From assembly GCF_000010665.1 (NCBI RefSeq), contig NC_012796.1, positions 3,501,501 through 3,565,500 on the forward strand: a DNA stretch of 64,000 nt, given 5' to 3'. This DNA comes from Solidesulfovibrio magneticus RS-1. GTDB lineage: Bacteria > Desulfobacterota > Desulfovibrionia > Desulfovibrionales > Desulfovibrionaceae. The notes under the pieces are model-generated. The model made no database searches. It was given only the letters and a program-made list of their open reading frames with translations, and was not told the DNA's origin. Shown piece after piece: positions 4,364 through 57,928 of the stretch. Position numbers and translations under genes: made by a program. Positions within the stretch are counted from its first letter, which is position 1, and every line of letters begins with the position of its first letter.

Positions 4364-4421
4364 TCCCCCTTTCCCATATGGGGGGTCCGGGGGCCTCAGG
4401 CCCCCGGCCGCCGGAGGCATC
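4364..4421 (-). repeat. Palindromic 3'-flanking repeat, copy A
   Basis: On the minus strand it begins with GATGCCTCCGGCGG at 4421, 11 nt after the stop of the flavoprotein gene. The palindrome CCGGGGGCCTGAGGCCCCCGG follows, then a C-run and a matching AAAGGGGG arm able to form a second hairpin. It occupies most of the gap before the ferredoxin gene. Confidence 0.85.
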
Positions 4422-4432
4422 TTCGTCTTTAA

Positions 4433-5536
4433 TTATCTTCCCCTTACCCTGGGTGCGTCGCGGAAATCGCCGCCGGGGAAGCGTTCGGCTTCGCGGCTGA
4501 TGAGTTCGTCGCCAGTGAATTCGGTCTGGCGGTTCTGGGCCTTGAGGTCGAGCCACTGGGCCAGGGAGCGGGCGGCGCGCAGCCCGGAATAGATGGCCTT
4601 GCCGATCTTGCTTGGGCCGGTGAGGGCATCGCCGGCCACGAACACGTTTTCGATGGCGGTCATGTTGAGCCAGCGCACTTCGCCCTTGCGCACGGATTCA
4701 AGACCAAGTTCCTTGGCGAAAGGCGGCGTGGCCACCTCGCCGATGGCGGCGACGACAAGATCGGCCTCGAAGCCGCGCTCCAGGCCGCCTTGCTTGCAGA
4801 CGATGCCCGTGGCAGCGGTTTCGCCCAGGACGGCCTCGGGCAGGCAGCCTTCGTGCCAGACCACGCCGGCGGCTTCCAGGCGTTCGATCTCCAACCGGCC
4901 ACAGGGGGCTTCGGCCCGGGTACGGCGGTAGAGCATGTCCACCGAGGCCGCGCCCAGGGCGGCCGCTCCGTGGGCCACGTCCACGGCCGAGTGGCCGGCC
5001 CCGATGACCACGACCTTCTTGCCGGCCACGTCCGGGGCCTTGACCCCGGGGGCGCAGTAGTGGGCGGCCCGGATGGGAAAGAGGAACTCCAGGCCCGAGC
5101 ACACCCCGGGCAGGTCCTCGCCGGGGATGCCGAGCTTGCGCGAGCGCCAGGAGCCGGTGGCGATCATGATGGCCTCGTGCTTGGTGATCATCTCACCCAG
5201 GCCCTTGACCTCGGTGCAGAAGTGGTCGCCCTCTTCCTCGAACAGCGGCGCGCTGCAGCAGATCTTGGTATGGGTGTAAAAAACCACGCCGTATTGACGG
5301 GCCATGCGCAGAGTGCCGGCCTCGATGCGCTGGCGCGGGATGCGGTGGCCGGGGATGCCGAAAAGCATGAGCCCGCCGGGTTTGGGCATCTTGTCGTAGA
5401 CCTCGACGGCATGTCCCAGGCACGACAGGTAGCCGGCGGCGGCCAGGCCCGACGGGCCGGCCCCGACGATGCCGATGGACAGGCCGCTTGGCGGCGGCGG
5501 GTCGCCGCACTGGAAATTGAAGTTCATGGGTTCCAT
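4433..5536 (-). CDS. FAD-dependent NAD(P) oxidoreductase, GltD-like
   Basis: 367 residues from ATG 5536, with GGAG upstream. The FAD Rossmann motif GIVGAGPSGLAAAGYL starts near residue 20, the NAD(P) motif VVVIGAGHSAVDVAHG lies near residue 180 and the C-terminal FAD-binding VFVAGDALTGPSKIGKAI near residue 315. These are hallmarks of the glutamate synthase small-subunit family. Unlike true GltD it lacks the N-terminal cysteine-rich Fe-S domain; the adjacent four-cluster ferredoxin may supply that function. Likely reaction: electron exchange between NAD(P)H and ferredoxin. It probably leads a two-gene operon divergent from the EamA gene. Confidence 0.85.
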   Translation of the reverse strand: MEPMNFNFQCGDPPPPSGLSIGIVGAGPSGLAAAGYLSCLGHAVEVYDKMPKPGGLMLFGIPGHRIPRQRIEAGTLRMARQYGVVFYTHTKICCSAPLFEEEGDHFCTEVKGLGEMITKHEAIMIATGSWRSRKLGIPGEDLPGVCSGLEFLFPIRAAHYCAPGVKAPDVAGKKVVVIGAGHSAVDVAHGAAALGAASVDMLYRRTRAEAPCGRLEIERLEAAGVVWHEGCLPEAVLGETAATGIVCKQGGLERGFEADLVVAAIGEVATPPFAKELGLESVRKGEVRWLNMTAIENVFVAGDALTGPSKIGKAIYSGLRAARSLAQWLDLKAQNRQTEFTGDELISREAERFPGGDFRDAPRVRGR

Positions 5537-5655
5537 GGCTGCTCCGGTTTTGGGGCAGCCTACCCCGGAAAATCGGCCGGGTAAACGCCGTAACGCATGA
5601 CTTTTGCAAGTGATTATGCGAACAAGCTCCCCCCGAAGGGGAAAGGAGCCTGGCC

Positions 5656-6546
5656 ATGACGCGAATCTACTGCAAGCTCGTCGGTTCGGCCGTGCTGTGG
5701 GGCGGCACCTGGGTAGCCGGCCGGGTGCTGGCCACCTACATGGGACCGTTTTCGGCGGCGTTTTTGCGTTTCGCCCTGGCCTCGGTGTTCCTCTATTTCC
5801 TGACTGCCCGCATGGAGGGGAAGTTCCCAAGGCTGGCCCGGCGCGACCTGCCCTGGCTGCTGACCTTGGCCGCCACGGGCATCTTTGCCTACAACGCGCT
5901 GTTTTTCGCCGGGCTTCGCACCGTGCCGGCCGGCCGGGCGGCGCTCATCGTGGCTTGCATCCCATCGGTGGTGGCGCTTTTCTCGGGCGTCCTTTTTCGT
6001 GAGCGTTTCACGAAGCTCAAGATCGCCGGCATCGCCACGTCGTTTGCCGGGGTGGGCTGCATCGTTTCCGGCGGCGATCCGGCGTCGCTTTTGGCCAAGG
6101 GGCTTTCGACGGGCGATTTGTGCATTTTCGGCTGTGTGGCTGCCTGGGCCGCCTACACCCTGGCCGGCAAGAAAGCCATGGAGCGGGTGGGCCCGTACAG
6201 CGCCGTGGCCTGGTCATGCATCCTGGGCGCGGCCATGCTCTTGCCGCCGGCGTTGGCCTCGGGCCTGTGGCGCGACGTGGCGGTGGCCGGACCGGTGGCC
6301 TGGGGCTGTGTGGCCTTTTTTGGCATCCTGGCCACGGGCTACGGGTTTTCCTGGTATTACGAAGGGGTCAAGGCCATCGGCCCGACCAAGGCCGGGGTGT
6401 TTATCAACCTCGTGCCGGTGGTGGCGGTGGTGCTTGGCCATGCGCTCTTGGACGAGCCGCTGTCCCCGGCCCTGGCCGTGGGTGGCGCACTGGTGCTGGC
6501 CGGGGTATGGCTCACCAACAGACATCCGGCTTTGGCCAACCGATAA
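5656..6546 (+). CDS. EamA/DMT-family transporter
   Basis: 296 residues with about ten hydrophobic helices in two similar halves, the RhaT/EamA arrangement. Each half carries the family hallmarks: WGGTWVAGRVLATYMGPFSAAFLRF near residue 15 and WAAYTLAGKKAMERVGPYSAVAW near residue 160. AAAGGAG lies about 8 nt before the ATG. It is likely an inner-membrane exporter of metabolites or amino acids; the substrate is not predictable. It is transcribed divergently from the flavoprotein/ferredoxin pair. Confidence 0.9.
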   Translation: MTRIYCKLVGSAVLWGGTWVAGRVLATYMGPFSAAFLRFALASVFLYFLTARMEGKFPRLARRDLPWLLTLAATGIFAYNALFFAGLRTVPAGRAALIVACIPSVVALFSGVLFRERFTKLKIAGIATSFAGVGCIVSGGDPASLLAKGLSTGDLCIFGCVAAWAAYTLAGKKAMERVGPYSAVAWSCILGAAMLLPPALASGLWRDVAVAGPVAWGCVAFFGILATGYGFSWYYEGVKAIGPTKAGVFINLVPVVAVVLGHALLDEPLSPALAVGGALVLAGVWLTNRHPALANR

Positions 6547-6613
6547 CGGCCTTGCCTTCCCCACAACGAGAGGCTAGAGAGCATTACTCGCCTCAAGTTG
6601 CGGAGCCTACTGC

Positions 6614-7531
6614 ATGGAATTGCCCACTGCCCCGGCAACGATCCTCATCGTTGACGACGCCCCTTCCAATCTGGCTGTTTTGACCGAAGCCCTGCGCAGC
6701 GAATACGAAGTACGCATCGCTTCCAGCGGCTCCCAGGCCCTGCGTCTGGTGGAAGAGAGTGCGCCGGACCTTATTTTGCTCGACATCCTCATGCCCGACA
6801 TGGACGGCTACGAAGTCTGCCGCCGCTTCAAGGCCCGGGCGGCCACCCGCAACATCCCCATCATTTTCCTGACGGCCAAGGGCGACGTGGCCGACGAGAC
6901 GCTGGGGCTGGCGTTGGGGGCCGTGGACTACATCGTCAAACCGGTGAGCGTCCCCATCGTCCAGGCCCGGGTGCGCACCCATGTGGAACTCAAGCGCCGG
7001 GGCGATCTGCTGGAGACGCTGTCCATGCGCGACGGCCTGACCGGCATCGCCAACCGCCGCCGCTTCAACGACTGCCTCAACCGGGCCTGGCGGCAGGCCA
7101 TGCGTGGGGCGACGCCGCTGAGTCTGCTCATGGCCGACATCGATTGTTTCAAGGCCTACAACGACACCTACGGCCACATGGCCGGCGACGAATGCCTCAA
7201 GGCCGTGGCCGCCACCCTGGCCGGAGTGCTCAAGCGCCCGGGGGATCTGGCGGCGCGGTTTGGCGGCGAGGAGTTCGTCGTCATCCTGGAAGAGACCGAC
7301 CTGGCCGGGGCCATGCATCTGGCCGAGGCCATGCGTCTGGCCGTGTCCGACCTGGGCCTGACCCACGACGGCTCGTGCATTTCCAAGGTGGTCACCATCA
7401 CCCTGGGCGCGGCCTGCTGCGTGCCCAAGGCCGGAGGCAGCGCCGAGAATCTGCTGTGCCTGGCCGACCGCAAGCTCTACGAAGCCAAGATGGCCGGCCG
7501 CAACCGGGTGCTTGGCACGCAGCTCGTTTAG
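6614..7531 (+). CDS. Response regulator diguanylate cyclase (REC-GGDEF)
   Basis: 305 residues. Residues 8-125 are a receiver domain with acidic pocket VDD and phospho-acceptor D57 in [11 protein letters not shown]. Residues 135-300 are a GGDEF domain with intact GGEEF active site (217-221) and substrate loop [14 protein letters not shown]. An RPGD motif at 208-211, five residues before GGEEF, is a textbook inhibitory I-site, so product feedback is expected. It makes cyclic di-GMP from two GTP when phosphorylated. No cognate kinase is adjacent; the hybrid kinase at 20745-22667 is one possible partner in the window. Confidence 0.92.
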
Positions 7532-7765
7532 CCGGCAAAGCCCCGTCCCCGCCTTCCCGCTGACGCCGGTCTCCCGGCGCGCTGGGACACGACCGTCCCT
7601 GTTCCTCCCTTCCATTGCCCGGACGCCGGCCTTGATCGACAGGGGCTTGTCTGTTACTTTTTTTGCTTGCGAATTGCCGTTTCGCCAGTCGCGCCGGCCC
7701 GCCGGCGACGCCAGGATATGGCTTTTGTCACCACGTCCGCCACCTTCAACCCCCGGGAGCGAACC

Positions 7766-8518
7766 ATGCGCAAACGTTTTGGCCTTCTTCTGGCCGCCCT
7801 GGCCGCCTTTGTCCTGTGCTTCGGCGGCCTGGCCCAGGCCGAGGAAAAAGTCTACGTCAACGGCATCGATTTCGGCTTTCCGCCCTTCGGCTTCGTCGAC
7901 AAGGCCGGCAAACCCACCGGCTTCGACGTCGAATCCCTGGACTGGATCGCCAAAAAGATGGGCTTCAAGGTCAAACACCAGCCCATGGATTGGGACGGCA
8001 TCATCCCCGCCCTTTTGGCCAAAAAGATCGACATCATCGCTTCCGGCATGAGCGCCACCGCCGAACGCGCCCAGAAAGTCGATTTCTCCATCCCCTACTA
8101 CGAAGTCACCCAGGTCCTGGTCGTCGGCGACAAGGAAGCCACGCCCTTTGCCGAGATCCTCAAGTCCGGCAAAAAGATCGGCGTCCAGCGCGGCACCGTC
8201 ACCGCCAAGCTCCTCGAAGGCTTCGTCGGCCAGCCCGGCTACAAGTTCGAGCTCGTGCCCTACGACTCCACCGACCTGTCCATGGAAGACGTGAAGATCG
8301 GCCGCATCGCCGGCTCCGGCATGGACAGCACCATCGCCGCCGAAGTCATGAAGGCCCCCGGCTTCAAAATCGCCGGCACCTTCGACGCCGCTCCCGAAAA
8401 GTACGGCTACGCCATGCGCAAGGAAGACAAGGAGTTCCAGGCCAAGGTCAACGAGGGCCTCAAGCTCCTCATGGCCGACCCCTACTGGAAGGAACTCAAG
8501 GCCAAGTACGGCATCTAG
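7766..8518 (+). CDS. Polar amino-acid ABC transporter substrate-binding protein
   Basis: 250 residues from ATG 7766, preceded by GGGAG. A Sec signal peptide occupies residues 1-25 (MRKRFGLL then hydrophobic, ending AQA before EEKVYV). The mature protein is a family-3 solute-binding domain: DFGFPPFGFVDKAGKPTGFDV, then MDWDGIIPALLAKKIDIIASGMS and DFSIPYYE. It is paralogous to the truncated binding protein at the window start. It delivers an amino acid to the two permeases and ATPase downstream. The 234-bp gap before it probably holds its promoter, but no convincing boxes were found. Confidence 0.93.
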   Translation: MRKRFGLLLAALAAFVLCFGGLAQAEEKVYVNGIDFGFPPFGFVDKAGKPTGFDVESLDWIAKKMGFKVKHQPMDWDGIIPALLAKKIDIIASGMSATAERAQKVDFSIPYYEVTQVLVVGDKEATPFAEILKSGKKIGVQRGTVTAKLLEGFVGQPGYKFELVPYDSTDLSMEDVKIGRIAGSGMDSTIAAEVMKAPGFKIAGTFDAAPEKYGYAMRKEDKEFQAKVNEGLKLLMADPYWKELKAKYGI

Positions 8519-10105: not shown

Positions 10106-10798
10106 ATGGACGATTTTTTCGCCTTCGCCTGGGAGCGCATCATCCCGGCCCTGGACGCCGGACTGTGGACCAGCATCCTGCTCATCGTGCCGGCCTCGCT
10201 TTTTGGCGTGGCCATCGGCGTGTCCGTGGGCGCGCTACGGGTCTACGGCCCGCGCCCGGTGGTCAAAACCCTGGACGCCTATGTGTCGCTGTTTCGCGGC
10301 ACGCCGCTGGTCGTGCAGCTCTATTTCTGGTACTTCGCCCTGCCCTATGTGCGCATCGGCGATTTCGCCCTGGTGTTGTCGCCCATGTGGGCCGCCATTG
10401 TCGGTTTCGCCCTGTGCAGCGGCGCCTACCAGTCCGAATACATCCGGGGGGGGCTGCTTTCCATCAAACGCGGCCAGCTGCGCGCCGCCCAGGCCCTGGG
10501 CATGACGCCCTTCCAGTCCGTCACCTCCGTGGTGCTGCCCCAGGCCTTCCGCCGGGCGCTGCCGGGCTGCGGCAACGAAATCATCTACCTCATCAAATAC
10601 TCGTCCCTGGCCTCCATCATCACCGTCAGCGACCTGACCGGCATGGGACGCAGCCTGGCCAAGTCCAGCTTCCGCAATACCGAAGTCTTCATCGTCGTGG
10701 GGCTGTACTACCTGGCCCTGGTCACCATCGCCTCTTTCCTTCTCAAAATCGCCGAAAAGAAACTGGAGATCCCAGGCTTCGAAAGCAAACGCGAGTAG
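10106..10798 (+). CDS. Amino-acid ABC transporter permease (second subunit)
   Basis: 230 residues from ATG 10106, 8 nt after the ATPase stop. YVSLFRGTPLVVQLYFWYF and the EAA-type loop RAAQALGMTPFQSVTSVVLPQAFRRALPGCGNE mark it as a polar amino-acid permease. It is the last gene of the binding protein-permease-ATPase-permease operon. Copy B of the palindromic repeat begins 12 nt after its stop; no classical T-tract terminator is seen. Confidence 0.92.
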   Translation: MDDFFAFAWERIIPALDAGLWTSILLIVPASLFGVAIGVSVGALRVYGPRPVVKTLDAYVSLFRGTPLVVQLYFWYFALPYVRIGDFALVLSPMWAAIVGFALCSGAYQSEYIRGGLLSIKRGQLRAAQALGMTPFQSVTSVVLPQAFRRALPGCGNEIIYLIKYSSLASIITVSDLTGMGRSLAKSSFRNTEVFIVVGLYYLALVTIASFLLKIAEKKLEIPGFESKRE

Positions 10799-10810
10799 GA
10801 GGAAGACGAA

Positions 10811-10872
10811 GATGCCTCCGGCGGCCGGGGGCCTGAGGCCCCCGGACCCCCCAAATGGTTTAAGGGGGATGG
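10811..10872 (+). repeat. Palindromic 3'-flanking repeat, copy B
   Basis: Starts with GATGCCTCCGGCGG 12 nt after the permease stop, followed by CCGGGGGCCTGAGGCCCCCGG, then CCCCCC and a TTTAAGGGGGATGG arm. Its palindrome is identical to that of copy A. It faces copy C, 43 bp downstream, in inverted orientation. Confidence 0.85.
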
Positions 10873-10915: not shown

Positions 10916-10982
10916 ACCCCCTTGAAAAATTTCTTCAGTCGGGGGGGTTGGGGGCCTCAGGCCCCCAGCCGCCGGAGGCATC
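10916..10982 (-). repeat. Palindromic 3'-flanking repeat, copy C (inverted relative to B)
   Basis: On the minus strand it starts GATGCCTCCGGCGG at 10982, with palindrome TGGGGGCCTGAGGCCCCCA, then a C-run and a distal CAAGGGGG arm. It is the only copy with no gene ending in its own orientation just before it; it lies upstream of the plus-strand oxidase gene. Confidence 0.82.
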
Positions 10983-11026: not shown

Positions 11027-12388
11027 ATGGACGCCGCATTGCTGGGCGCGCTGGGGCGCGAACTGGGGCCGGGCTTTGTTTATGACGCCGCGGCCAGGGA
11101 CGCCGCCGCCAAGGACGACGCCGGTTTGGTCATCCCGCCCGAGGCGGTGTTTTTTCCGGCCGATGCCGGGGACGTGAGCCGGCTGATGGTGCTGGCCGGC
11201 CAGCACGGTTTTGCCGTGACGCCGCGCGGGGCCGGCACGGGGCTGGCGGGCGGTTGTCTGGCGGTTGCGGGCGGCGTGGTGGTCGATTTGTCGCGCATGG
11301 CCCGCATTGAGCGGTTGGACACGGCCAATTTGTGCGCCGTGGTCCAGGCCGGGGTGGTGACCCAGACCTTGCGCCAGGCGGCCAAGGACGCGGGGCTTTT
11401 TTATCCGCCCGATCCGGCGAGCCTGACCACCTGCACCCTTGGCGGCAACGCCGCCACCAACGCCGGCGGTCCGGCCTGCGTGAAATACGGCGTCACCCGC
11501 GATTACGTGCTGGGGCTGACGGCCGTCTTGCCCGACGGCGAGGTGGTCCGTTGCGGCACGGCCACGCGCAAGGGCGTGGTGGGCTACGACCTGACCGGGC
11601 TTATGGTCGGCTCGGAGGGGACGCTGGGGATCATCACCGAGCTGACGGTGAAGCTTATTCCGCATCCGCGCCAGGTCCGCGCGGCGGCGGCGCTTTTCCC
11701 TGACGCGCGTGCGGCCGTGGCGGCCGTGGCGGCGGTGATGGCCGCCGGTGTTTCGCCTTGCGCCCTGGAGCTCATGGACCGGGCTTGCCTGGGCATCGTG
11801 GCCGAGCTGTTGCCCTTTGATCTGCCCGGCCCGGAAGCGGCCCTGCTGCTTTTCGAGGCTGACGGCGATCCGGATCAGGCGGCGCGGGACATCGGGCGCA
11901 TGGAGGCCGTGTGCCGCGATGGCGGAGCGCTGGCCGTGCTGCCGGCGGAGAATAGCGCCAAGCGCGAGGAGCTGTGGGGCATTCGTCGCCAGATTTCCAC
12001 CCGCATCCACGAGAGCGCGCCTTTTTATCTGTCCGAGGACGTGGCCGTGCCCATCGCCCGCATCCCGGACCTCATCGACGCCTTGCCGGCCCTGGGCCAG
12101 CGTCATGGGCTGGCGGTCTACGCCTTCGGCCATGCCGGCGACGGCAACATCCATGTCAACATCACGGGCGAAGCCGGCAGCCGCGACCGGGCCCTGGCCC
12201 TGGCCAGGGACCTTATCGCCGAGGTGCTGGCCCTTGGCGGCACCATGTCCGGCGAGCACGGCATCGGCATCGCCAAACGGCCGTTTATCGACATGGAGCT
12301 GTCGGCGCGAAGCCTGTCACTGCAACGCGGCATCAAGGCCGCGTTCGATCCGGCCGGGATCATGAACCCGGGGAAAGTGCTGCCCTAA
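11027..12388 (+). CDS. glcD: FAD-linked 2-hydroxyacid oxidase/dehydrogenase (GlcD/D-lactate dehydrogenase family)
   Basis: 453 residues from ATG 11027, preceded by AAAAAGGA. The N-terminal FAD-binding type-4 domain shows the PP-loop PRGAGTGLAGGCL near residue 65 and GGNAATNAGGP near residue 143. The C-terminal catalytic domain contains YAFGHAGDGNIHVN and the closing SGEHGIGIAK, features of GlcD and D-lactate dehydrogenases. Expected reaction: oxidation of glycolate or D-lactate with electrons passed to the membrane pool or an Fe-S partner. No Fe-S subunit (GlcF/LutA) is adjacent, so the electron acceptor and exact substrate are open. Lactate is a principal substrate of such sulfate reducers, which makes D-lactate attractive. 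Confidence 0.85.
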   Translation: MDAALLGALGRELGPGFVYDAAARDAAAKDDAGLVIPPEAVFFPADAGDVSRLMVLAGQHGFAVTPRGAGTGLAGGCLAVAGGVVVDLSRMARIERLDTANLCAVVQAGVVTQTLRQAAKDAGLFYPPDPASLTTCTLGGNAATNAGGPACVKYGVTRDYVLGLTAVLPDGEVVRCGTATRKGVVGYDLTGLMVGSEGTLGIITELTVKLIPHPRQVRAAAALFPDARAAVAAVAAVMAAGVSPCALELMDRACLGIVAELLPFDLPGPEAALLLFEADGDPDQAARDIGRMEAVCRDGGALAVLPAENSAKREELWGIRRQISTRIHESAPFYLSEDVAVPIARIPDLIDALPALGQRHGLAVYAFGHAGDGNIHVNITGEAGSRDRALALARDLIAEVLALGGTMSGEHGIGIAKRPFIDMELSARSLSLQRGIKAAFDPAGIMNPGKVLP

Positions 12389-12442: not shown

Positions 12443-13009
12443 CTAGCCCAAGGCCTCGGCCCCGACGGCCTTTCGCAGATAGCAGACCTCAAAGGGGAGA
12501 GACTCGAAACGCGCCGCGCGAACGGCCCGAAAGCCCAGGGTTTCGTACCACTGCCGCAGCTCGTGCTGTTTGGCGATGATGCCGATTTCGACCTGCTCCG
12601 CGCCGACCTGCCCGGCCAGGGAGCAGGCCCGGCCGACCAGCAGCCGACCCAGCCCCAGGCGGCGGCAGGCGGGGGCCACGGCCAGTCGTTCCAGGATGCT
12701 GACCCCCTCGACCGGCCGGCGCAGGCCCACGCAGCCGCAAAGCGTTCCCCCGTCAAAGGCCAGCAACATGGTCGTGCCAAGCTCCATGCCGCGCTCAATG
12801 CGCTCCCGGGTCATGAGCGAGGGATGGGTCGGGCAGTTGCCGGCATTGAGGTCGAAACGCCGGGCCACGTCGCCGAAGGCCAGGACAATCAGCGCCGCGA
12901 TGTCCCCGGCCTCGCCCATGTCGGCCTGGCGCACCATCCACGGCTTGCCCTCGCCGCCTCCCATGGCCGCATCCCGCGCCTCCGGCGGCGGGCTTGCCCG
13001 CTCATCCAT
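12443..13009 (-). CDS. GNAT-family N-acetyltransferase
   Basis: 188 residues from ATG 13009, 4 nt after the stop of the TPR-methyltransferase gene, implying coupling. Acetyl-CoA binding motif A is RLAVAPACRRLGLGRLLV (about residue 110), followed by EIGIIAKQHELRQWYETLGF, the common GNAT ending. Later in-frame ATGs near residues 16 and 25 are possible starts; the first 25 residues look non-conserved. The substrate is unknown. Context next to a TPR-methyltransferase suggests protein or glycan modification, but that is inference. Confidence 0.82.
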   Translation of the reverse strand: MDERASPPPEARDAAMGGGEGKPWMVRQADMGEAGDIAALIVLAFGDVARRFDLNAGNCPTHPSLMTRERIERGMELGTTMLLAFDGGTLCGCVGLRRPVEGVSILERLAVAPACRRLGLGRLLVGRACSLAGQVGAEQVEIGIIAKQHELRQWYETLGFRAVRAARFESLPFEVCYLRKAVGAEALG

Positions 13010-19449: not shown

Positions 19450-20265
19450 ATGGCGCTGAGCGATTACGAACGCAGCCTGCTCATCGACACCTCGATGCAG
19501 ATGATGCAGCAAAGCCTGTTGAGCAACTTCCTGTTCCAGTCGGGACCGGTGGGGCAAAGCCTGCGCGATATGATGCTCGCCCCGCGCAACGTCGTGCCGC
19601 GCACCAACCCCTTTGACGAGGCCATCACCGGCACCCTGCGGGCCGACGTGCGCACCACGCTGCAAAATGCCGCCAACGTCTCGGAAGCAGCCGCCATGGT
19701 CGGCATCGCCAACGAGAGCGTATCCACCATCAAGAGCAACCTGGAGGAGATGAAGGCCATCATCGAATCCATCAGCACCACGCCAACAGCCGCCCAGACC
19801 AGCACCTACAATTCCCTGCGCAGTGAGATATTAAGCCTCATTCCGCAAACGGAGTATAACGGCATATCGCTGCTTGACGGCACGAAGTGGAACACGGACC
19901 AGATCGATTCAAACGGCAACGTCTACATACAGGCCTACAAAAACGGCGGTTTCAACGTCAATTTCCAGGACTTCAACGCCCTGAACTTCACGCAGCTCAC
20001 CAGCGCCAATCTAAATAACGCCGCCAACCGGGCCACGGAACTGTCAAGAGTCACCAACAAGCTCACCAGCACCACCATCATCAACGACATCTACACCAAC
20101 CGCCAAAGCGGGCTGGAATACCAGGCCGAAAACCTCAAGGGACAGTCCGAACTGCTGGAACAGGCCGTGGAAGCCCGGCGCCAACAGCCCACCACCTCCA
20201 CCGAAGACATCCTGCTCAACCTGCTGCTGCGCGACACCGGCTCGCTGCTCGACACGTCGAGTTAG
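19450..20265 (+). CDS. Flagellin-like protein of unknown role
   Basis: 271 residues. Residues 60-145 read like the coiled D1 region of flagellin: TLRADVRTTLQNAANVSEAA, then SNLEEMKAIIESI, and SEILSLIPQTEYNGISLLDG, close to the flagellin ending TEFNGxxLLDG. The first 55 residues do not match the usual D0 helix beyond the opening MALS, and the C-terminus (ending TSTEDILLNLLLRDTGSLLDTSS) lacks a recognisable flagellin C-terminal D0. No signal peptide is seen. Third codon positions are slightly less GC than in neighbours. The sigma-28-type promoter supports a flagellar function. It could be a cap, junction or minor filament component, or a decayed flagellin; this remains unproven. Confidence 0.65.
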   Translation: MALSDYERSLLIDTSMQMMQQSLLSNFLFQSGPVGQSLRDMMLAPRNVVPRTNPFDEAITGTLRADVRTTLQNAANVSEAAAMVGIANESVSTIKSNLEEMKAIIESISTTPTAAQTSTYNSLRSEILSLIPQTEYNGISLLDGTKWNTDQIDSNGNVYIQAYKNGGFNVNFQDFNALNFTQLTSANLNNAANRATELSRVTNKLTSTTIINDIYTNRQSGLEYQAENLKGQSELLEQAVEARRQQPTTSTEDILLNLLLRDTGSLLDTSS

Positions 20266-20280: not shown

Positions 20281-20350
20281 GATGCCTCCGGCGGCTGGGG
20301 GCCTGAGGCCCCCAGCCCCCCCCCATATGGAGAAAGGTTTAAGGGGGTTT
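20281..20350 (+). repeat. Palindromic 3'-flanking repeat, copy D
   Basis: GATGCCTCCGGCGG begins 15 nt after the flagellin-like gene's stop. The palindrome CTGGGGGCCTGAGGCCCCCAG follows; both outer positions change together relative to copy A, so pairing is kept. A C-run and GGTTTAAGGGGG arm complete the second hairpin. Confidence 0.85.
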
Positions 20351-41288: not shown

Positions 41289-42149
41289 TTACGGCTTTCG
41301 CCCCTCCACCACCCGCTCCAGGCCGGCCAGATCGCGGCGCACGACGACGTCGGTAAATCCTGCCTCGGCCAGGAAGGCGGCGGCGGCCGGTCCCTGCTTC
41401 CAGCCGATCTCGACCAGCAGCGTCCCGCCCGGGGCCAGTCGCGACAAGGCGGCCCGGGCCACCGTGGGCACGGCCTCAAGCCCTGTCTCGCCCGGGGTCA
41501 GGGCGCTGGACGGCTCAAACTCCCGCACTTCGCGGGAGCACTCCCGGTATTCAGCGGCGCTGACGTAGGGCGGATTGGACACGACCAGCCCGTAGCCCTC
41601 GCCATGGGCCGGCAGATCGGCGAAGTCGGCTTCAAAAAAGGTCAGGCGTTGGGCCACCTGATGCCGGACGGCGTTTTGCCGGGCCACGGCCAGGGCCTCG
41701 GGGCTCAGGTCCAGGGCCAGGCCCGTCGCGCCGGGAAAACGCACGGCCAGGGTCACGGCCAGACAGCCCGAGCCGGTTCCGAGGTCGGCAAACGACGTCA
41801 GCTCGCCGGCCGGGAACAGTTCCAGCGACCGGTCGATGATGAGCTCCGTCTCCGGGCGCGGGATGAGCGTGGCCGGGGTGACGGCGAAATCCAGGCCGTA
41901 GAATTCGCGCTCGCCCAGGATGTAGGCGACGGGTTCGCCCTTGCCCCGGCGGGCGACCAGGGGACGCACGAGGTCGAGTTCTTCCGGGGTCAGGGGCCGG
42001 TCCATGGCCAGAATGAGGCCGAGGCGGTCCAGGCCCAGGGCCTGGGACAACAGGAGCTGGGCCGAGAGCCTGGGACTGTCCAGGCCCCGGCCCTCGAAAA
42101 AGGCTTCGCTCTTGGCCAGGATCTCGCGAACCGTGGGCGCTTTCGCCAT
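41289..42149 (-). CDS. prmC: Peptide chain release factor N5-glutamine methyltransferase
   Basis: 286 residues from ATG 42149, preceded by GGAGGGAG. The SAM site FADLGTGSGCLAVTLA, the acidic ALDLSPEAL and the catalytic NPPYV are all present, as is the N-terminal substrate domain with IPRPETELI. It methylates the glutamine of the GGQ motif in release factors. Its substrate gene prfA is directly upstream on the same strand. Confidence 0.96.
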   Translation of the reverse strand: MAKAPTVREILAKSEAFFEGRGLDSPRLSAQLLLSQALGLDRLGLILAMDRPLTPEELDLVRPLVARRGKGEPVAYILGEREFYGLDFAVTPATLIPRPETELIIDRSLELFPAGELTSFADLGTGSGCLAVTLAVRFPGATGLALDLSPEALAVARQNAVRHQVAQRLTFFEADFADLPAHGEGYGLVVSNPPYVSAAEYRECSREVREFEPSSALTPGETGLEAVPTVARAALSRLAPGGTLLVEIGWKQGPAAAAFLAEAGFTDVVVRRDLAGLERVVEGRKP

Positions 42150-42240: not shown

Positions 42241-42293
42241 CTCCCCGGGTGGGGTTTCCAAAGGGGCTCAGCCCCTTTGGCCGCCGGAGGCAC
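42241..42293 (-). repeat. Palindromic 3'-flanking repeat, copy E
   Basis: On the minus strand it starts GTGCCTCCGGCGG at 42293, 17 nt after the prfA stop. The palindrome is CCAAAGGGGCTGAGCCCCTTTGG, wholly different in arm sequence from copies A-D yet perfectly paired. It fills most of the prfA-prmC gap. Confidence 0.82.
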
Positions 42294-42310: not shown

Positions 42311-43384
42311 TTACGCAGCATCCGCCTGCGCCTTCAGGGCCTCGGCCTGGTAGTGGCCGATGAGCGCGCCGCACAGTTCGTCGAGGTCGCCTTCCAGGAC
42401 GGCGTCGAGGCGGTAGAGCGTCAGGTTGATGCGGTGGTCGGTGACGCGGCCTTGGGGAAAGTTGTAGGTGCGGATGCGTTCCGAGCGGTCGCCGGTGCCG
42501 ACCTGGGAGCGGCGGGCGGCTTCCTGTTCGGCCCGTTGCTTGTCCTGTTCGACCTGGAGCAGGCGAGAGCGCAGAACCTTGAGGGCCTTGGCCTTGTTTT
42601 TGTGCTGGGACTTTTCGTCCTGGCAGATGACCACCAGCCCGGAGGGGATGTGGGTGACGCGCACGGCCGAGTCGGTGGTGTTGACGCTCTGGCCGCCGGG
42701 ACCGCTGGAGCGGTAGACGTCGATGCGCAGCTCGTTGGGGTCGATGGCGACATCGACTTCCTCGGCTTCGGGCATGATGGCCACGGTAACGGCCGAGGTG
42801 TGGATACGGCCCTGGGATTCGGTGGCCGGCACGCGCTGGACACGGTGGGCGCCGGATTCGTATTTGAGGCGGCTGTAGACCTTGTCGCCGGAGATGGAGG
42901 CGATGACTTCCTTGAAGCCCCCGGAGCCGGTCTCGGACTGGCTCATGATCTCGACCTTCCAGCGCTTGGTCTCGGCGTAGCGGGTGTACATGCGGAAGAG
43001 GTCGCCGGCGAAAAGGGCCGCTTCGTCGCCGCCGGTGCCGGCCCGGATTTCCAGCAGGATGTTTTTTTCATCCATGGGATCCTTGGGCAAAAGCAGCACC
43101 TTGAGCCGGGCTTCCAGTTCGACCTGGGCTTCCTTGAGGGCCTTGGTCTCGGCCTGGGCCAGCTCGCGGATCTCGGGATCGGGGTCCTGGGCCATTTCCT
43201 GGTTGTCTTCCAGGTCCTGGGCGATCTTTTTGTACTCCCGGAAGGCGGCCACCACATCGCTGAGGTCGGAGTGGGTCTTGGACAGCTTACGGAAGCGCTC
43301 CTGGTCGGAGACGACGTCGGGCGCGGACAGTTGGCGTTCCAGATCCTCGTACTTGCGTTCGAGGCTTTCGAGCTTGGCGAACAT
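42311..43384 (-). CDS. prfA: Peptide chain release factor 1
   Basis: 357 residues. The GGQ peptidyl-hydrolysis motif appears in [17 protein letters not shown], and the tripeptide PAT in [15 protein letters not shown] identifies it as RF1 (UAA/UAG) rather than RF2. It is part of the run rpmE-DUF1385-prfA-prmC, a common order in delta-type proteobacteria. PrmC encoded downstream modifies it. Confidence 0.97.
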
Positions 43385-46288: not shown

Positions 46289-47038
46289 ATGCATACCCTG
46301 GTCCTCGTGCGCCACGGCCAAAGCGTGTGGAACCTCGAAAACCGGTTCACCGGCTGGACCGACGTGGGCCTGACGCCCCAGGGCCGGGAGGAAGCCGCCC
46401 AGGCGGCAAACCTCCTTCGCGACGGCGGCTACGACTTCGACGCCTGCCTGACCTCGGTGCTCTCCCGGGCCGTCATGACCCTCGACATCCTCCTGACCGG
46501 CCTCGACCGCCTGTGGCTGCCGGTCACCAAATCCTGGCGCTTAAACGAACGCCACTACGGCGGGCTCCAGGGCCTTAACAAGGCCGAAATGGCCGCCCAG
46601 TACGGCGAGGAGCAGGTGTTCGTCTGGCGCCGAAGCTACGACACTCCGCCCCCGGCCCTGGACCCCGCCGACGAACGCTTCCCCGGCCGCGACCGGCGCT
46701 ATGCAACCCTCACCGACGCCGAACTGCCGCGCTGCGAATCGCTCAAGGACACCGTGGCCCGGGTCATGCCCTTCTGGCACGACGTCATGGCCCCGGCCAT
46801 CGCCTCGGGCACGCGGCTGCTCGTGGCCGCCCACGGCAACTCCCTGCGCGCCCTGGTCAAATACCTCGACGCCATCGGCGACGACGCCATAAGCGAATGC
46901 AATATCCCAACAGGCGTGCCGCTTATCTACAAACTCGACGCCTCCCTCAAACCCCTCGAACACTTCTACCTCGGCGACGCCGAAGCCGTGGCCCGCAAAG
47001 CCGCCGCCGTGGCCGCCCAGGGCAAGGCGAAGGGATAA
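46289..47038 (+). CDS. gpmA: 2,3-bisphosphoglycerate-dependent phosphoglycerate mutase
   Basis: 249 residues, standard size. The phospho-histidine motif is [27 protein letters not shown], followed by [21 protein letters not shown] and the second histidine in [17 protein letters not shown]. It interconverts 3- and 2-phosphoglycerate in glycolysis. It lies 26 nt after thiC with its own GGGAG, so the two are probably co-transcribed although functionally unrelated. Confidence 0.96.
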
Positions 47039-47051: not shown

Positions 47052-47112
47052 GATGCCTCCGGCGTCCGGGAGGGGGTGACCCCCTCCCGGACCCTCCCTG
47101 AAAGGGGGATGG
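47052..47112 (+). repeat. Palindromic 3'-flanking repeat, copy F
   Basis: GATGCCTCCGGCG begins 13 nt after the gpmA stop. The palindrome GTCCGGGAGGGGG/CCCCCTCCCGGAC with TGA loop is longer than in other copies and again fully paired. A CCCTCC...AAAGGGGGATGG tail matches that of copy B. Confidence 0.82.
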
Positions 47113-47198: not shown

Positions 47199-47216
47199 CG
47201 CGGTCGGGCGTCCCTT

Positions 47217-47238
47217 AAAAATACAACAGTATTTTTTT
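47217..47238 (+). terminator. AT-rich secondary hairpin
   Basis: AAAAATAC (47217-47224) pairs with GTATTTTT (47229-47236) followed by more T. It is weak alone, but together with the preceding terminator it may block read-through. Confidence 0.4.
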
Positions 47239-47303
47239 AGGAATAATAATGGGTTTGGTTTGTTGTCTACGAACCGCCATAGGCGCTTTTCGCGGTCGCT
47301 CCT

Positions 47304-48638
47304 CTACCGCTCGTCCTTGGGCTTGTGGCTGGCCCGGCAGACGACCTTGACCGGGGCCGTGGCGATGCCAAAGAGCTTGCGCAGGCTGTTTTCCAGGTAT
47401 TTGATGTAGGAATCGCGCACTCGCTCGGTGTCGCTGACGAAAAAGACGAAGGTCGGCGGCGCGTCGGCGGCCTGGGTCAGGTAGTAGAACTTCGCCCGCC
47501 GGCCGTTGACCAGGGGCGGCTGGTGCTTGTCCAGCGAGGCCCGCATGGCCCGGTTGAGCTCGCCCGTGCCGATGCGGATCTGACACTCGGCCCAGATGGC
47601 CTCGGCCTGGGGCAGCACCTTGGCCACGCCCTTGCCCTTGGCCGCCGACATATAGAGCACCGGCACGTGGGAACACATGCGCAGTTCCCGGGCGATGTCC
47701 TTTTGCAGGGCCAGCATGTCCTTTTGGGGCACGAGGTCGGTCTTGTTGACGGCCACCAAAAACGCCTTGCGCTCGCTGTCCAGAAACGAAATGAGCCGCT
47801 TGTCCTGGACGCCGACGCCGCCGGTGGCGTCGATGACGACCACGGCCACATCGGCCCGCTTGGCGCTGGAAAGGGCCTTGGCCACGCTGTAGCGCTCCAG
47901 GCCGTCGGTGATGCGGGTGCGCTTGCGCACGCCGGCCGTGTCCACGAACAGGTAGCGCTTGCCTTTTTGATGCACCACCACGTCCACGGCGTCGCGGGTG
48001 GTGCCGGCGATGTCGCTGACGATGAGCCGCGATTCGCCGACCAGGGCGTTAATGAGCGACGACTTGCCGGCGTTGGGCCGGCCGAGCACGGCCAGACGCA
48101 GCACGGTCTGGACCAGGGGCGCGTCCGGGTCGTACGGCTCGGCTTCGGGCAGGCGCTCGGCGATGGCCTCGGCCAGCTCGGCCATGCCCTGGCCGTGGGC
48201 GGCGGAAATGGCCAGAAGCGGCAGGCCCCAGGCGTGGAAGTCGGCGGTCATGGCGGCCACGCGCTCCAGGCCGTCGACCTTGTTGACGGCCACGATGACG
48301 GGCTTGCCCAGCCGGCGCAGACGCTCGGCCAGATCGTCTTCCAAGGCGGTGCGGCCGGCCTTGCCGTCCACGAGAAACAGCACCACGTCGGCCGTGACCA
48401 GGGCGGCCTCGGCCTGTTCGACGATTTGTCTGGCCAGGCTTTCCTCGGCCTCGTAGTCCATGCCGCCGGTATCGACCAGGGTGACAAAGCGGCCTTCGAT
48501 CTCGGCCGGGGCCTCCAACCGGTCCCGGGTGACGCCGGGGAGGTCATGGGTGATGGCCCGGCGACCACGGGTCAGCCGGTTGAAAAGCGTGGACTTGCCT
48601 ACGTTTGGCCGTCCGACGATGGCCACGATAGGGGGCAT
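47304..48638 (-). CDS. der: Ribosome biogenesis GTPase Der (EngA)
   Basis: 444 residues with the diagnostic tandem G domains. The first has GRPNVGKST, DTGG and NKVD; the second, from about residue 175, has GRPNAGKSS, DTAGV and NKTD. The C-terminal KH-like domain (FYYLTQAADAPPTFVFFVSD) is complete. AAGGAG precedes the ATG. It assists 50S subunit assembly. Confidence 0.97.
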   Translation of the reverse strand: MPPIVAIVGRPNVGKSTLFNRLTRGRRAITHDLPGVTRDRLEAPAEIEGRFVTLVDTGGMDYEAEESLARQIVEQAEAALVTADVVLFLVDGKAGRTALEDDLAERLRRLGKPVIVAVNKVDGLERVAAMTADFHAWGLPLLAISAAHGQGMAELAEAIAERLPEAEPYDPDAPLVQTVLRLAVLGRPNAGKSSLINALVGESRLIVSDIAGTTRDAVDVVVHQKGKRYLFVDTAGVRKRTRITDGLERYSVAKALSSAKRADVAVVVIDATGGVGVQDKRLISFLDSERKAFLVAVNKTDLVPQKDMLALQKDIARELRMCSHVPVLYMSAAKGKGVAKVLPQAEAIWAECQIRIGTGELNRAMRASLDKHQPPLVNGRRAKFYYLTQAADAPPTFVFFVSDTERVRDSYIKYLENSLRKLFGIATAPVKVVCRASHKPKDER

Positions 48639-53957: not shown

Positions 53958-54181
53958 GGCATGCCTCGCGTCCTGTAATATGGTGGGACATCCCCGCCGC
54001 CAGCCGGCGCAGGCGGGCGCGTCCATGCCCGTTGTAGGCCCGCCGCTCCAAAATTACAACCGTTTGCCGGACCAAGTTGCGCCTTGGCGTGCCATTGACC
54101 GGCTTGCCGGAAGCGGGGTACACCCGCCAGCGAAATTTCGCCCCGCGCAGGCTTGCGCGGCCGCTGCAAGGAGCCCCTTTC

Positions 54182-55612
54182 ATGGCCAGGTACGAAACGG
54201 TCATCGGCGTCGAGGTCCACGCCCAGCTCAAAACCAAAAGCAAAATCTTTTGCTCCTGTTCCACCCGCTTTGGCGTTGATCCCAACGAAAATGTCTGCCC
54301 AGTCTGCTCGGGCATGCCCGGCGTGTTGCCGGTCTTAAACGCCACGGTCGTCGAGTATGCCGCCAAGATGGGCCTGGCCACGGGCTGCGTCGTCAATCCG
54401 GTCTCGGTCTTTGCCCGTAAGAACTATTTCTATCCCGATCTGCCCAAGGGCTACCAGACTTCCCAGTTCGAGCAGCCCATCTGCGAGCACGGCCATGTGG
54501 ACATCACCGTGGACGGCACGGCCAAGCGAATCGGCATCACCCGCATCCACATGGAAGAGGACGCCGGCAAGAACATCCACTCCGCCGCCGACAACCTAAG
54601 CTACGTGGACCTCAACCGGGCCTGCGTGCCGCTTATCGAGATCGTCTCCGAACCGGACATGCGCGGCCCCGAGGAAGTCGTGGCCTACTTAAAGGCCCTG
54701 CGCGCCATCCTCGTCTACCTCGACGTGTGCGACGGCAACATGGAAGAAGGCTCCTTCCGTTGCGACGCCAACGTGAGCTTGCGCCCGGTGGGCCAGGCCG
54801 AGTTCGGCACCCGGGCGGAGCTCAAAAACCTCAACAGCTTCCGCCACGTCCAAAAAGCCATTGAATACGAGGTGGAACGCCAGGCCGACATCCTCGACGA
54901 CGGCGGGAAGGTCATCCAGGAAACCCGCCTCTACGACGCCGCCAAAAACACCACCGCCTCCATGCGCGGCAAGGAAGAGGCCCACGACTACCGCTATTTC
55001 CCGGACCCCGACCTCGTGCCCGTGCGCATCGAGGCCGCCACCCTGGATAAATGGCGCGCCGAACTGCCTGAGCTGCCCGAAGCCCGCCGCGCCCGCTTCG
55101 TCGCCGATTTCGGCCTGTCCGACTACGACGCCGAAGTGCTCACCGCCGAGCGCGACATGGCCGAATACTTCGAAGCCGCCGTGGCCGCCGGGGCCGACCC
55201 CAAAAAGGCCGCCAACTGGATGCAAAGCGAGCTTTTGCGCGAACTCAACCAGGCTGGCGTCGCCGCCCGGGACGCCAAGCTCACCCCCGAGAAACTGGCC
55301 TCCCTCGTAAAGCTCATCGACTCCGGCGAAATCTCCGGCAAGATCGCCAAGCAAATCTTCCCCGACCTTTTTGCCCAGGGCCTTGACCCGGCCGATTACG
55401 TGCGTCAAAAGGGCCTGTCGCAGATTTCCGATTCCAACGCTCTGGAATCTGCCGTGGAGGCCGTGCTGGCCGCCAACCCGGCCGAGGTGGAAGCCTTCCG
55501 GGGCGGCAAGACCAAGCTCATGGGCTTTTTCGTGGGGCAGATCATGAAGGCGACCAAGGGTCAGGCCAACCCGGGGCTCGTCAACGAACTGCTGCAAAAA
55601 AAGCTCGGCTAG
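54182..55612 (+). CDS. gatB: Asp-tRNA(Asn)/Glu-tRNA(Gln) amidotransferase subunit B
   Basis: 476 residues from ATG 54182, with AAGGAG upstream. [23 protein letters not shown] is the conserved N-terminus; the zinc-site cysteines are in FCSC and CPVCSGMPG. The kinase-type core has HMEEDAGKN and the C-terminal YqeY-like tRNA-binding tail is present. It activates Glu-tRNA(Gln) or Asp-tRNA(Asn) for amidation. gatA and gatC are not adjacent, so the complex is encoded at more than one locus. Confidence 0.97.
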
Positions 55613-55641
55613 GGCCGCGCTCCGAAGACGAAAGGAATCCC

Positions 55642-55673
55642 GGCCGCGGTGAACGCGGCCTGCCGCCCTTTTT
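55642..55673 (+). terminator. Possible gatB terminator
   Basis: GGCCGCG (55642-55648) pairs with CGCGGCC (55654-55660), with a T5 run at 55669-55673, 8 nt beyond the stem. The gap makes it a weak terminator. Confidence 0.4.
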
Positions 55674-55896
55674 GCTCGGACGCGGCGCAGCCTCATGACG
55701 CGGCGAACCGCCCGGAGCGTTGCGCGGAAGGGTTTTGCGCGTGGCTTGTGGCGACGCCTTTTGGGCGGCCGCCCGGGCCAGGGTGAAACGCAACACGCCA
55801 AATTTGCGACTGATGCTGCCCTGGCCGCCAGGGCCTGCCCGACCGCCCGGAGGCGGCGCGGGGCGCGTTTTGGACACTCTTATCCCGGAAGCCGCC

Positions 55897-56940
55897 ATGA
55901 CCGACCATATCGCCTTTTCCGTCGACAAACAGGCCCTGCTCCTCCTTGACCAGCGTTTCCTGCCCGACCGCGAGGAATGCTTCGTGGTGCGCAACACCGC
56001 CGACACCGTCTACGCCCTGCAAACCATGGTGGTTCGCGGCGCGCCGGCCATCGGCGTCACTGCCGCCTACGGCTGCTGGCTGGCCGGACGCGAAGCGGCC
56101 GAAGCCGGAGACGCCTGGAAGGACCGCCTGCGGGAACTCCTCGTCGAGCTGGAACAGGCCCGCCCCACCGCCGTCAACCTGCGCTGGGCCGTGGAACGGA
56201 TGCGGGAAAAATGGGCGTCCATGGGCGACGTCTCCCTGGAGACGCTGCTCTCGACCTGGCTGGGTCTGGCCCAGGACATGCACAGCGAAGACATCGAGAT
56301 CAACAAGGCCATGGGCAGAAACGGGGCCGACCTCATTGCCGACGGCGACACCGTGCTCACCCACTGCAATGCCGGCGCCCTGGCCACGGCCGGCTACGGC
56401 ACGGCCCTGGGCGTCATCCGGGCCGCCTTCGAGCAGGGCAAGCGCATCCAGGTCATCGCCGACGAGACCCGGCCGTTTTTGCAGGGCGCGCGCCTGACCG
56501 CCTATGAGCTGGCCAAGGAAGGCATCCCGGTGACCGTCGCCTGCGACAACGCCGTGGGCCATCTCATGAAGCGCGGCATGGTCCAAAAGGTCGTGGTCGG
56601 CGCGGACCGCATCGCCGCCAACGGCGACGCCGCCAACAAGATCGGCACCTACACCGTGGCCCTGGCCGCCAAGGCCCACGGCGTGCCCTTCTACGTGGCC
56701 GCTCCGGCTTCCACCTTCGACCTGCGCATCGCCACGGGCGACGAGATCCCCATCGAGGACCGCACCCCGCGCGAAGTCACCCATGTGGGCGAACACCGCA
56801 TCACCCCGGAAAACGTCCCGGTCTACAACTACGCCTTCGACGTCACCCCGGCCGAACTCATCGCCGGCATCATCACCGAGCGCGGTGTCCTGACCGCGCC
56901 CTATGTCGAGTCCATTCGCGCCGTCATCGGCGGGAAGTAG
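55897..56940 (+). CDS. mtnA: S-methyl-5-thioribose-1-phosphate isomerase
   Basis: 347 residues from ATG 55897 (weak GGAAG upstream). An open frame extends further upstream without family similarity. [15 protein letters not shown] near residue 50, the catalytic cysteine in [11 protein letters not shown] near residue 155 and the catalytic aspartate in [20 protein letters not shown] near residue 235 identify the enzyme. It converts methylthioribose-1-phosphate to the ribulose isomer in methionine salvage, and in some bacteria serves 5-deoxyribose salvage. thi4 begins 31 nt downstream, so they are likely co-transcribed. Confidence 0.95.
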
Positions 56941-56971
56941 TACGCAACCCAAAGCGAAAAGGACCCAACAG

Positions 56972-57763
56972 ATGTCTCTCGACGAACGCATCATCACCCA
57001 GGCCATCCTGGAGACCTATTTCGAGAAGTTCAAATCGAGCCTTGATCTTGACGTCGCCATCGTCGGCGGCGGCCCCTCGGGCATGACCGCCGCCCGGCTT
57101 TTGGCCGCCGACGGCTTCAACGTCGCCCTGTTCGAACGCAAGCTGTCCCTTGGCGGCGGCATGTGGGGCGGCGGCATGACGTTTAACATGATCGTCGTCC
57201 AGGAAGAGAGCGTGCACCTGCTCACCGACGTGGGCGTGCCGGTCAAACGCTACAAGGACAACTACTTCACCGCCGACGCCGTGGCCGCCACCACCACCCT
57301 GGCCTCGGCCGCCTGCCTGGCCGGCGCCAAGATCTTCAACTGCATGAGCGTCGAGGACGTCATGCTGCGCGAGGAAAACGGCGTCAAACGCGTCACCGGC
57401 ATCGTCATCAACTCCTCGCCCGTGGAAATCGCCGGCCTGCACGTCGATCCCGTGGTGCTGGGGTCCAAATACCTCGTCGAGGCCACCGGCCACGCCGTGG
57501 AAGTGCTGCAAACCCTGGTGCGCAAAAACGACGTGCGCCTCAACACGCCCTCGGGCGGCATCGAGGGCGAACAGTCCATGTGGGCCGACACGGCCGAGAT
57601 CAACACCGTCAAGAACACCCGCGAGATCTTCCCCGGACTGTACGTGGCCGGCATGGCCGCCAACGCCAGCTACGGCTCCTACCGCATGGGGCCGATCTTC
57701 GGCGGCATGCTGCTGTCGGGCGAAAAGGTCGCCGCCGACATCGCGGCGAAGCTGAAAGGCTAG
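56972..57763 (+). CDS. thi4: Thiazole synthase, sulfide-dependent Thi4 type
   Basis: 263 residues from ATG 56972. The FAD/NAD Rossmann motif VAIVGGGPSGMTAARLLA is at residues 28-45 and GGGMWGGGMTFN at 61-72. The position of the suicide cysteine of yeast Thi4 is here H157 in GLHVDP, as in methanogen enzymes that use free sulfide catalytically. It builds the thiazole of thiamine from NAD, glycine and sulfide with iron. A sulfide-producing cell makes this biochemistry natural. It follows mtnA by 31 nt; thiC for the pyrimidine half is 11 kb away. Databases often misname this family ribose-1,5-bisphosphate isomerase. Confidence 0.93.
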   Translation: MSLDERIITQAILETYFEKFKSSLDLDVAIVGGGPSGMTAARLLAADGFNVALFERKLSLGGGMWGGGMTFNMIVVQEESVHLLTDVGVPVKRYKDNYFTADAVAATTTLASAACLAGAKIFNCMSVEDVMLREENGVKRVTGIVINSSPVEIAGLHVDPVVLGSKYLVEATGHAVEVLQTLVRKNDVRLNTPSGGIEGEQSMWADTAEINTVKNTREIFPGLYVAGMAANASYGSYRMGPIFGGMLLSGEKVAADIAAKLKG

Positions 57764-57823
57764 CAGACCAGGGCAGGCGAAAACCGCTCCCGTTCCCGAA
57801 ACCGGAAAACGCTCCCTCCACAG

Positions 57824-57858
57824 AAAAGGGCCGCGGCATTGCGCTGCGGCCCTTTTTT
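57824..57858 (+). terminator. Terminator of the mtnA-thi4 unit
   Basis: AAAAGGGCCGC (57824-57834) pairs with GCGGCCCTTTT (57846-57856), with a T6 run on plus. It lies 60 nt after thi4. Confidence 0.85.
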
Positions 57859-57879
57859 ATGGAGTCTCGCCCCGCCTTT

Positions 57880-57928
57880 CCCTTTGCAGGGGTCCGGGGG
57901 GATCATCCCCCCGGCCGCCGGAGGCCTC
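57880..57928 (-). repeat. Palindromic 3'-flanking repeat, copy G
   Basis: On the minus strand it starts GAGGCCTCCGGCGG at 57928, 8 nt after the stop of the DUF89 gene. Palindrome CCGGGGGGATGATCCCCCCGG; then ACCCCTGCAAAGGG. Central GGATGATCC differs from the other copies but pairs perfectly. Confidence 0.8.

What the first reader, a model, noticed from the sequence alone, without database searches (positions are those of the whole stretch)
4364..57928. Seven-copy palindromic repeat placed just after stop codons, with compensatory stem changes
Copies A (4364-4421), B (10811-10872), C (10916-10982), D (20281-20350), E (42241-42293), F (47052-47112) and G (57880-57928) share a purine-rich lead and a GATGCCTCCGGCGG-like head, then a palindrome, then a C-run and AAAGGGGG-type arm. 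The palindrome arms differ between copies (CCGGGGGCC, CTGGGGGCC, CCAAAGGGGC, GTCCGGGAGGGGG, CCGGGGGGAT), yet both arms change together. In six copies the head starts 8-17 nt after a stop codon and points the same way as the gene just ended. Paired variation suggests selection on an RNA or cruciform structure; fixed sense placement suggests a 3'-UTR role (processing, protection, termination) or a mobile element that targets gene ends.
Basis: seen in the sequence. Interest (0 to 1): 0.78.

Follow-up and report, generated by a model that had tools for sequence, protein, structure and literature searches.

The report
Stop-codon-hugging palindromic mobile DNA repeat
A short palindromic DNA repeat with one fixed 'head' of 12-15 letters is scattered hundreds of times through this sulfate-reducing bacterium, mostly just behind the ends of genes, and the same head marks repeats in some bacteria of other phyla, so it looks like a little-described kind of mobile DNA rather than a gene-specific RNA signal.

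Summary
The seven copies are real and belong to a family of about 360 in the window's genome (359 exact GCCTCCGGCGG; 16 for the reversed pattern). In 111 sampled copies, 74 heads lie within 30 nt behind a same-strand stop; random placement in the same gaps gives 26, at most 38. The unit is about 75 bp: purine lead, head GATGCCTCCGGCGGC, perfect palindrome, C-run and G-run. It is no T-run terminator (1 of 84) and can sit between operon genes (prfA-prmC). The 'paired variation' is mostly turnover of discrete stem types: types are clade-specific, orthologous sites keep an element with a different stem, and at one site with near-identical flanks the whole cassette differs between close species. 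Sense G-U and A-C mismatches are equal (10:12), yet stems change slowly. The head is high-copy in Desulfoluna (930), an Aminicenantes MAG (128), Victivallis (89), weakly in a Bacteroidia MAG (16); the preference for stops is weaker in Desulfoluna and Aminicenantes. RAYT transposases are missing from several high-copy genomes. Best reading: a REP-like, RAYT-independent palindromic mobile cassette, mobiliser unknown. Rfam Clostridiales-2 matches weakly, below cutoff.

The parts
4364..4421 (-). copy A, 11 nt after the TAA of gene 4433-5536 (-), between two tandem genes; site empty in G001 and G003
10811..10872 (+). copy B, 12 nt after the TAG of gene 10106-10798 (+)
10916..10982 (-). copy C, antisense partner, tail-to-tail with B, upstream of gene 11027-12388 (+)
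20281..20350 (+). copy D, 15 nt after the TAG of gene 19450-20265 (+); whole intergenic cassette differs in G006
42241..42293 (-). copy E, 16 nt after the TAA of prfA (42311-43384, -) and before prmC (41289-42149, -); site occupied in all 10 genus genomes seen, 5 stem types, one flipped
47052..47112 (+). copy F, 13 nt after the TAA of phosphoglycerate mutase (46289-47038, +); by eye a GC hairpin with five T lies about 120 nt behind the stop
57880..57928 (-). copy G, 8 nt after the TAG of gene 57937-59697 (-)
10799..10810 (+). purine-rich lead of copy B, filling the space between stop and head (typical of the family in this genome)
10811..10825 (+). head GATGCCTCCGGCGGC of copy B

Best explanation
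A high-copy, REP-like palindromic mobile DNA cassette of about 75-100 bp. Its near-invariant head is most likely the recognition site of an unidentified trans-acting mobiliser; the palindrome behind it is a replaceable hairpin module. Cassettes come to lie close behind stop codons, would be carried in the 3' untranslated part of the transcript, and are over time replaced by cassettes of the locally dominant stem type. Shown: the genome-wide family, its placement in this genome, clade-specific stems, site-by-site presence and absence, one clean cassette difference, and the high-copy head in other phyla. Inferred: recognition of the head, insertion (rather than retention) near stops, spread by copying, transcription.
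For: 359 vs 16 control; 139-400 in the 13 other genus members; 10 or more in only 6 of 297 phylum genomes, own included. 74 of 111 heads within 30 nt behind a sense stop, null mean 26, maximum 38 of 2,000. Purine content at the first base after the stop 0.84 in 76 element genes, 0.42 in 501 controls. One stem type: 40 and 32 copies in G004 and G011, 0 in 12 others; another: own 148, G008 141, G006 121, G012 36, G007 30, G005 28, G013 18, 0 in 7 others. Sites A and B/C empty in 2 of 6 genomes. Different cassettes of 146 and 89 nt between identical runs of 74 and 43 nt in own and G008. In G008 5 of 15 orthologous heads are changed, 4 by deletion. 930, 128, 89 and 16 copies in Desulfoluna, Aminicenantes, Victivallis and Bacteroidia genomes, reversed control 0-2.
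Against: No mobiliser was found (only Y1_Tnp was searched for) and no target-site duplication. 13 of 15 own-G008 orthologous pairs have identical stems, one a single change, one a compensated pair, so turnover is not fast. Stems change less than flanks, which hints at use by the host or palindrome repair. Outside the genus the sense bias is weak: Desulfoluna 17 sense to 14 antisense, Aminicenantes 4 to 8 among copies with a called upstream gene. Counts in two phyla rest on MAGs.
Confidence: 0.62

Rival explanations
1. A functional 3'-UTR RNA element kept by selection at each gene (mRNA protection, translation-termination control), as reported for some REPs close to stops.
For: Placement behind stops; stems change 1.1% vs about 6% in flanks, with one compensated pair at own_big 80099; site E occupied in all 10 genomes seen; two hairpins in the sense fold of most window copies.
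Against: Sense G-U equals A-C (10:12). 5 of 15 orthologous heads are changed in G008. Orthologous genes may lack it (F in 3 of 13; A and B/C in 2 of 6). Few genes have it (359 heads; 756 genes called per 858 kb). Sense fold z-scores lie between -1.1 and -2.2 for 6 of 7 copies; F is -5.8.
Confidence: 0.2
2. A transcription terminator (unusual, without T-run, or bidirectional).
For: Hairpin behind genes; convergent ends with an element have fewer T-run terminators downstream (7 of 41) than ends without (24 of 66; Fisher p 0.048), tandem ends 5 of 43 vs 34 of 175 (p 0.27).
Against: T-run terminator inside 1 of 84 elements. Elements lie between tandem genes: prfA-prmC, and site A, where relatives without it have about 24 nt between the genes. 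A terminator-like hairpin lies further downstream at G and, by eye, at F.
Confidence: 0.08
3. A classical REP family spread by a RAYT (Y1 transposase).
For: High-copy extragenic palindromes with a conserved foot sequence; 11 tail-to-tail pairs within 400 nt in the sampled tiles; Y1_Tnp matches in 8 of 16 genomes, own included.
Against: Y1_Tnp not found in G010 (400 copies, 100% complete), G022 (198, 100%), G004 (139, 100%), nor in the Victivallis, Aminicenantes and Halodesulfovibrio genomes, whose completeness is not told. The four own matches are partial, at two places, two with an inner TGA. No GTAG or CGTC tag.
Confidence: 0.06
4. Coordinated arm changes come from template-switch repair of palindromes alone, without mobility or selection.
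For: Near-perfect stems with no wobble bias; slow stem change.
Against: Does not explain one dominant stem per clade, differences in lead and tail too, or the same high-copy head in other phyla.
Confidence: 0.04

Closest known systems
REP / REPIN elements with RAYT (TnpA-REP); GTAG- and CGTC-tagged superfamilies (PMC3733652, passages read)
   Same: Short palindrome with a conserved unpaired tag at one end, hundreds of extragenic copies, inverted pairs, often close to stops
   Different: Tag is 12-15 nt, GATGCCTCCGGCGGC, not GTAG or CGTC; no Y1 transposase in several high-copy genomes; stems swap as modules; same tag in several phyla
E. coli REPs within 15 nt of a stop, said to lower translation of the upstream gene (PMC12306157, passages read)
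   Same: Placement close behind the stop
   Different: Here 74 of 111 sampled heads lie within 30 nt of the stop; the paper puts 446 of 4,072 E. coli REPs within 15 nt; no functional data here
Rfam RF02937 Clostridiales-2 RNA
   Same: Weak matches in several high-copy genomes (own 8, G066 15, G063 9, G064 1, G062 1) and none in 14 controls or in low-copy G014 and G019; in the loci read (L166, L167, L299, L301, L302) they lie on the strand opposite the head
   Different: All far below the gathering score (best 30.9 vs 58.6 bits); none in high-copy G059 and G061; none over cutoff in 8 further genomes, six of them labelled Firmicutes or Clostridia. The paper I recall as its source was not held
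Intrinsic terminators
   Same: GC hairpin after a gene
   Different: No T-run; found between tandem genes

Membership tests
REP (RAYT-associated) | GTAG or CGTC (or, recalled, GGAG) tetranucleotide 5' of the hairpin | tested here: not met
   GCCTCCGGCG is the same in all 7 window copies; GGAG occurs only on the other strand, 3' of the hairpin
REP (RAYT-associated) | RAYT / Y1 transposase in the genome | tested here: not met
   PF01797 absent from 8 of 16 genomes, among them high-copy G010, G022, G004, G059, G061, G063
REP (RAYT-associated) | high-copy extragenic palindrome | tested here: met
   359 copies; of 129 exact cores in 858 kb, 121 intergenic, 114 of these with a stem
Rfam RF02937 Clostridiales-2 | score above 58.6 bits | tested here: not met
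   0 of 9 and 0 of 8 genomes over cutoff
Intrinsic terminator | hairpin followed at once by a T-run | tested here: not met
   1 of 84
MITE | terminal inverted repeats and target-site duplication | tested here: inconclusive
   No duplication seen at the one clean cassette difference, where both alleles are occupied; no clean empty site at close range was found
3'-UTR regulatory RNA | covariation beyond that of DNA palindromes (sense G-U excess) | tested here: not met
   G-U 10, A-C 12; small numbers
3'-UTR regulatory RNA | effect on transcript or translation | not testable with these tools
   needs RNA data or mutants

The most novel reading that the evidence does not exclude
A new class of horizontally spread bacterial mobile cassettes: one invariant 12-15-nt head, read by an unknown, RAYT-independent enzyme, carries interchangeable hairpin modules to the ends of genes; existing cassettes are exchanged as units, so each lineage rewrites the 3' ends of hundreds of genes with its own hairpin.
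Probability: 0.37. Interest if true: 0.8.

Novelty: new variant of a known kind. Interest (0 to 1): 0.6.

Why it matters
It would show that REP-like repeats exist without RAYT and cross phyla, and that gene 3' ends in a whole genus are being rewritten by a mobile hairpin. The steep copy-number differences (for example 400 in G010, 1 in G019, both complete) and the clean cassette difference make the missing mobiliser findable by gene presence and absence. It also warns that 'compensatory' stem changes between repeats need not mean RNA selection.

Tried and rejected
Considered and set aside: intrinsic terminator; REP/RAYT; DNA-uptake signal (heads are seldom without a hairpin and seldom in genes; not tested further); a small ORF from the ATG in the head (the three letters before GCC vary, 46 of 111 GAT); antisense copies as ribosome-binding sites: several put GGAGG 9-12 nt before an ATG (L132, L139, L144, L155, L159, L302), but heads near starts are not above chance (7 vs null 9.7). 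Plasmid and phage collections gave no match to copy B at E 0.001. A purine average was spoiled by letter case (printed 0.0); the position-wise counts there and one search are used. In one search minus-strand loci were read on the wrong strand; one search replaces it, except that G003 at site F is read (plus strand). My first reading that the cassette at own_big 203052 begins exactly at the stop was wrong: one search shows that the called gene runs 10 nt into the differing segment, so the last codons and the stop (TAA in own, TGA in G008) differ too. Literature: the head sequence gave 24 papers with unrelated titles; further searches. Only listings were seen, except passages of PMC3733652 and PMC12306157. 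The library lacks most subscription papers, so this does not show that the repeat is unpublished.

Full report
What is there. The seven copies are present as described. Each reads: purine-rich lead, GATGCCTCCGGCGGC-type head, a perfect palindrome, then a C-run and G-run that pair in the fold of most copies. Six sit 8-16 nt behind a stop codon in the sense of the gene; C is antisense and faces B tail to tail. The genome (5,315,620 bp; the contig sizes are those I recall for Desulfovibrio magneticus RS-1, recall only) holds 359 exact heads (GCCTCCGGCGG) against 16 for the reversed pattern.

Placement. I fetched 40 further tiles, chosen around heads listed, and called genes with a home-made Markov caller (858 kb with the window). 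Of 129 exact cores 121 were intergenic, and 114 of these had a stem. Without duplicates and copies lacking a neighbour, 111 remained: 74 heads lie within 30 nt behind a same-strand stop, against a mean of 25.9 and a maximum of 38 in 2,000 random placements in the same gaps; in convergent gaps 37 of 41 heads are nearer the sense stop than the tail is to the other; tandem gaps have 44 sense and 23 antisense (p 0.014); 3 are divergent. Purines begin at the first base after the stop (0.84 in 76 element genes, 0.42 in 501 controls), and element genes use TGA less often (13 of 76 vs 185 of 501). Some gene calls are surely wrong.

Not a plain terminator. A T-run terminator lies inside 1 of 84 elements. 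Copy E separates prfA from prmC, and copy A lies between two genes that are about 24 nt apart in relatives without it. At site F three relatives without an element have a GC hairpin with a T-run soon behind the stop. Convergent ends with an element have fewer T-run terminators (7 of 41 vs 24 of 66, p 0.048; tandem 5 of 43 vs 34 of 175, p 0.27), which leaves room for some role.

Stem turnover. Orthologous sites: F occupied in 10 of 13 genomes; E in 10 of 10 seen, 9 sense and 1 flipped; A and B/C in 4 of 6; D in 4 of 4 close orthologs, absent behind a 46%-identical homologue in G011; G in 2 of 3, with a headless hairpin in G004. Stems at one site differ between clades. One stem type has 40 copies in G004, 32 in G011 and none in 12 others; another has 148, 141 and 121 in own, G008 and G006, 18-36 in four more and none in 7. 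D differs wholly between own and G006 although the upstream protein is 99% identical. At own_big 203052 (tile numbering, own C2 3401501 on), own and G008 are identical over 74 nt, then differ over 146 and 89 nt, then are identical over 43 nt; the difference starts 10 nt before the end of the called gene, so it takes in the last codons and the stop. Import from a third strain could also explain this. Some elements carry two or three hairpins behind one head.

Selection or not. In 236 stem-bearing elements sense G-U and A-C mismatches are 10 and 12: no RNA-type bias, on small numbers. In 15 own-G008 orthologous pairs substitutions are 5.6-6.5% in flanks, 2.4% plus four deletions in heads, 1.1% (3 of 282) in stems; two of the three stem changes are one compensated pair. 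Pairs were chosen by a recognisable head in own, so the head figure counts mainly the G008 branch. Left out: the swapped site, own 94690 and 190976 (no anchors), own 83140 and 112978 (poor stems), and G008 copies at 104721, 187817 and 23572 without a matching own stretch. Stems are kept while heads decay: this fits a head needed for copying and a hairpin kept by use or by palindrome repair.

Spread. Heads number 139-400 in 13 of 13 other genus members and 0-198 in the 21 other family members sampled; only 6 of 297 phylum genomes, own included, have 10 or more of the 12-letter head. High counts outside: Desulfoluna spongiiphila 930, Candidatus Aminicenantes MAG 128, Victivallis vadensis 89, Bacteroidia MAG 16, reversed control 0-2. 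An ORF of 90 codons or more ends within 40 nt before the head in Victivallis 3 of 5, Aminicenantes 7 of 16, Desulfoluna 9 of 20, Halodesulfovibrio 2 of 3, Bacteroidia 0 of 2; the mirror control on the tail side gives 0, 5, 3, 0 and 0, so Aminicenantes shows little preference. With gene calls, Desulfoluna has 17 sense and 14 antisense copies and Aminicenantes 4 and 8, with 7 of its 21 inside called genes. Desulfoluna and Aminicenantes share one element type over 39 nt. Of 103 longer-head matches in viral contigs 13 had a stem, about eight of them convincing by eye.

Known families. Y1_Tnp is absent from 8 of 16 genomes, several of them high-copy, so RAYT is not the general mobiliser; no other mobiliser family was searched. 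No Rfam family reached its cutoff at an element in the searches made; RF02937 Clostridiales-2 matches weakly but repeatedly, on the opposite strand where read, and not in high-copy G059 and G061.

Verdict. A REP-like palindromic mobile cassette with a new tag and unknown mobiliser (0.62). Selection on a 3'-UTR RNA remains the main rival (0.2).

Noticed in passing
G008 loci L417-L425 and own L407-L411 (own_big 63213, 77770, 78592); window about 47200-47320: MITE-like insertions of about 95-104 nt in G008 with ends like GTGTCGCGTCC...GGACGCGACAC; by eye a relative lies downstream of copy F in the window.
   Followed up: no
window 12978-12987: An eighth exact head with only a 5-bp stem (GCGGG-CTTG-CCCGC) between called genes; perhaps a decayed copy.
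   Followed up: no
L132 3501, L139 3501, L144 3501, L155 19680, L159 3501, L302 near 1549; site E in G010: Antisense copies whose reverse-complement head puts GGAGG 9-12 nt before an ATG, so the element may serve as ribosome-binding site; as a class not above chance.
   Followed up: partly
L139, L143, L155, L166, L181: Two or three different hairpins in a row behind one head, spaced by ACCC-type linkers.
   Followed up: partly
L321, L341, L344, L351, L358, L405: Viral contigs that carry apparently true copies of the repeat.
   Followed up: partly
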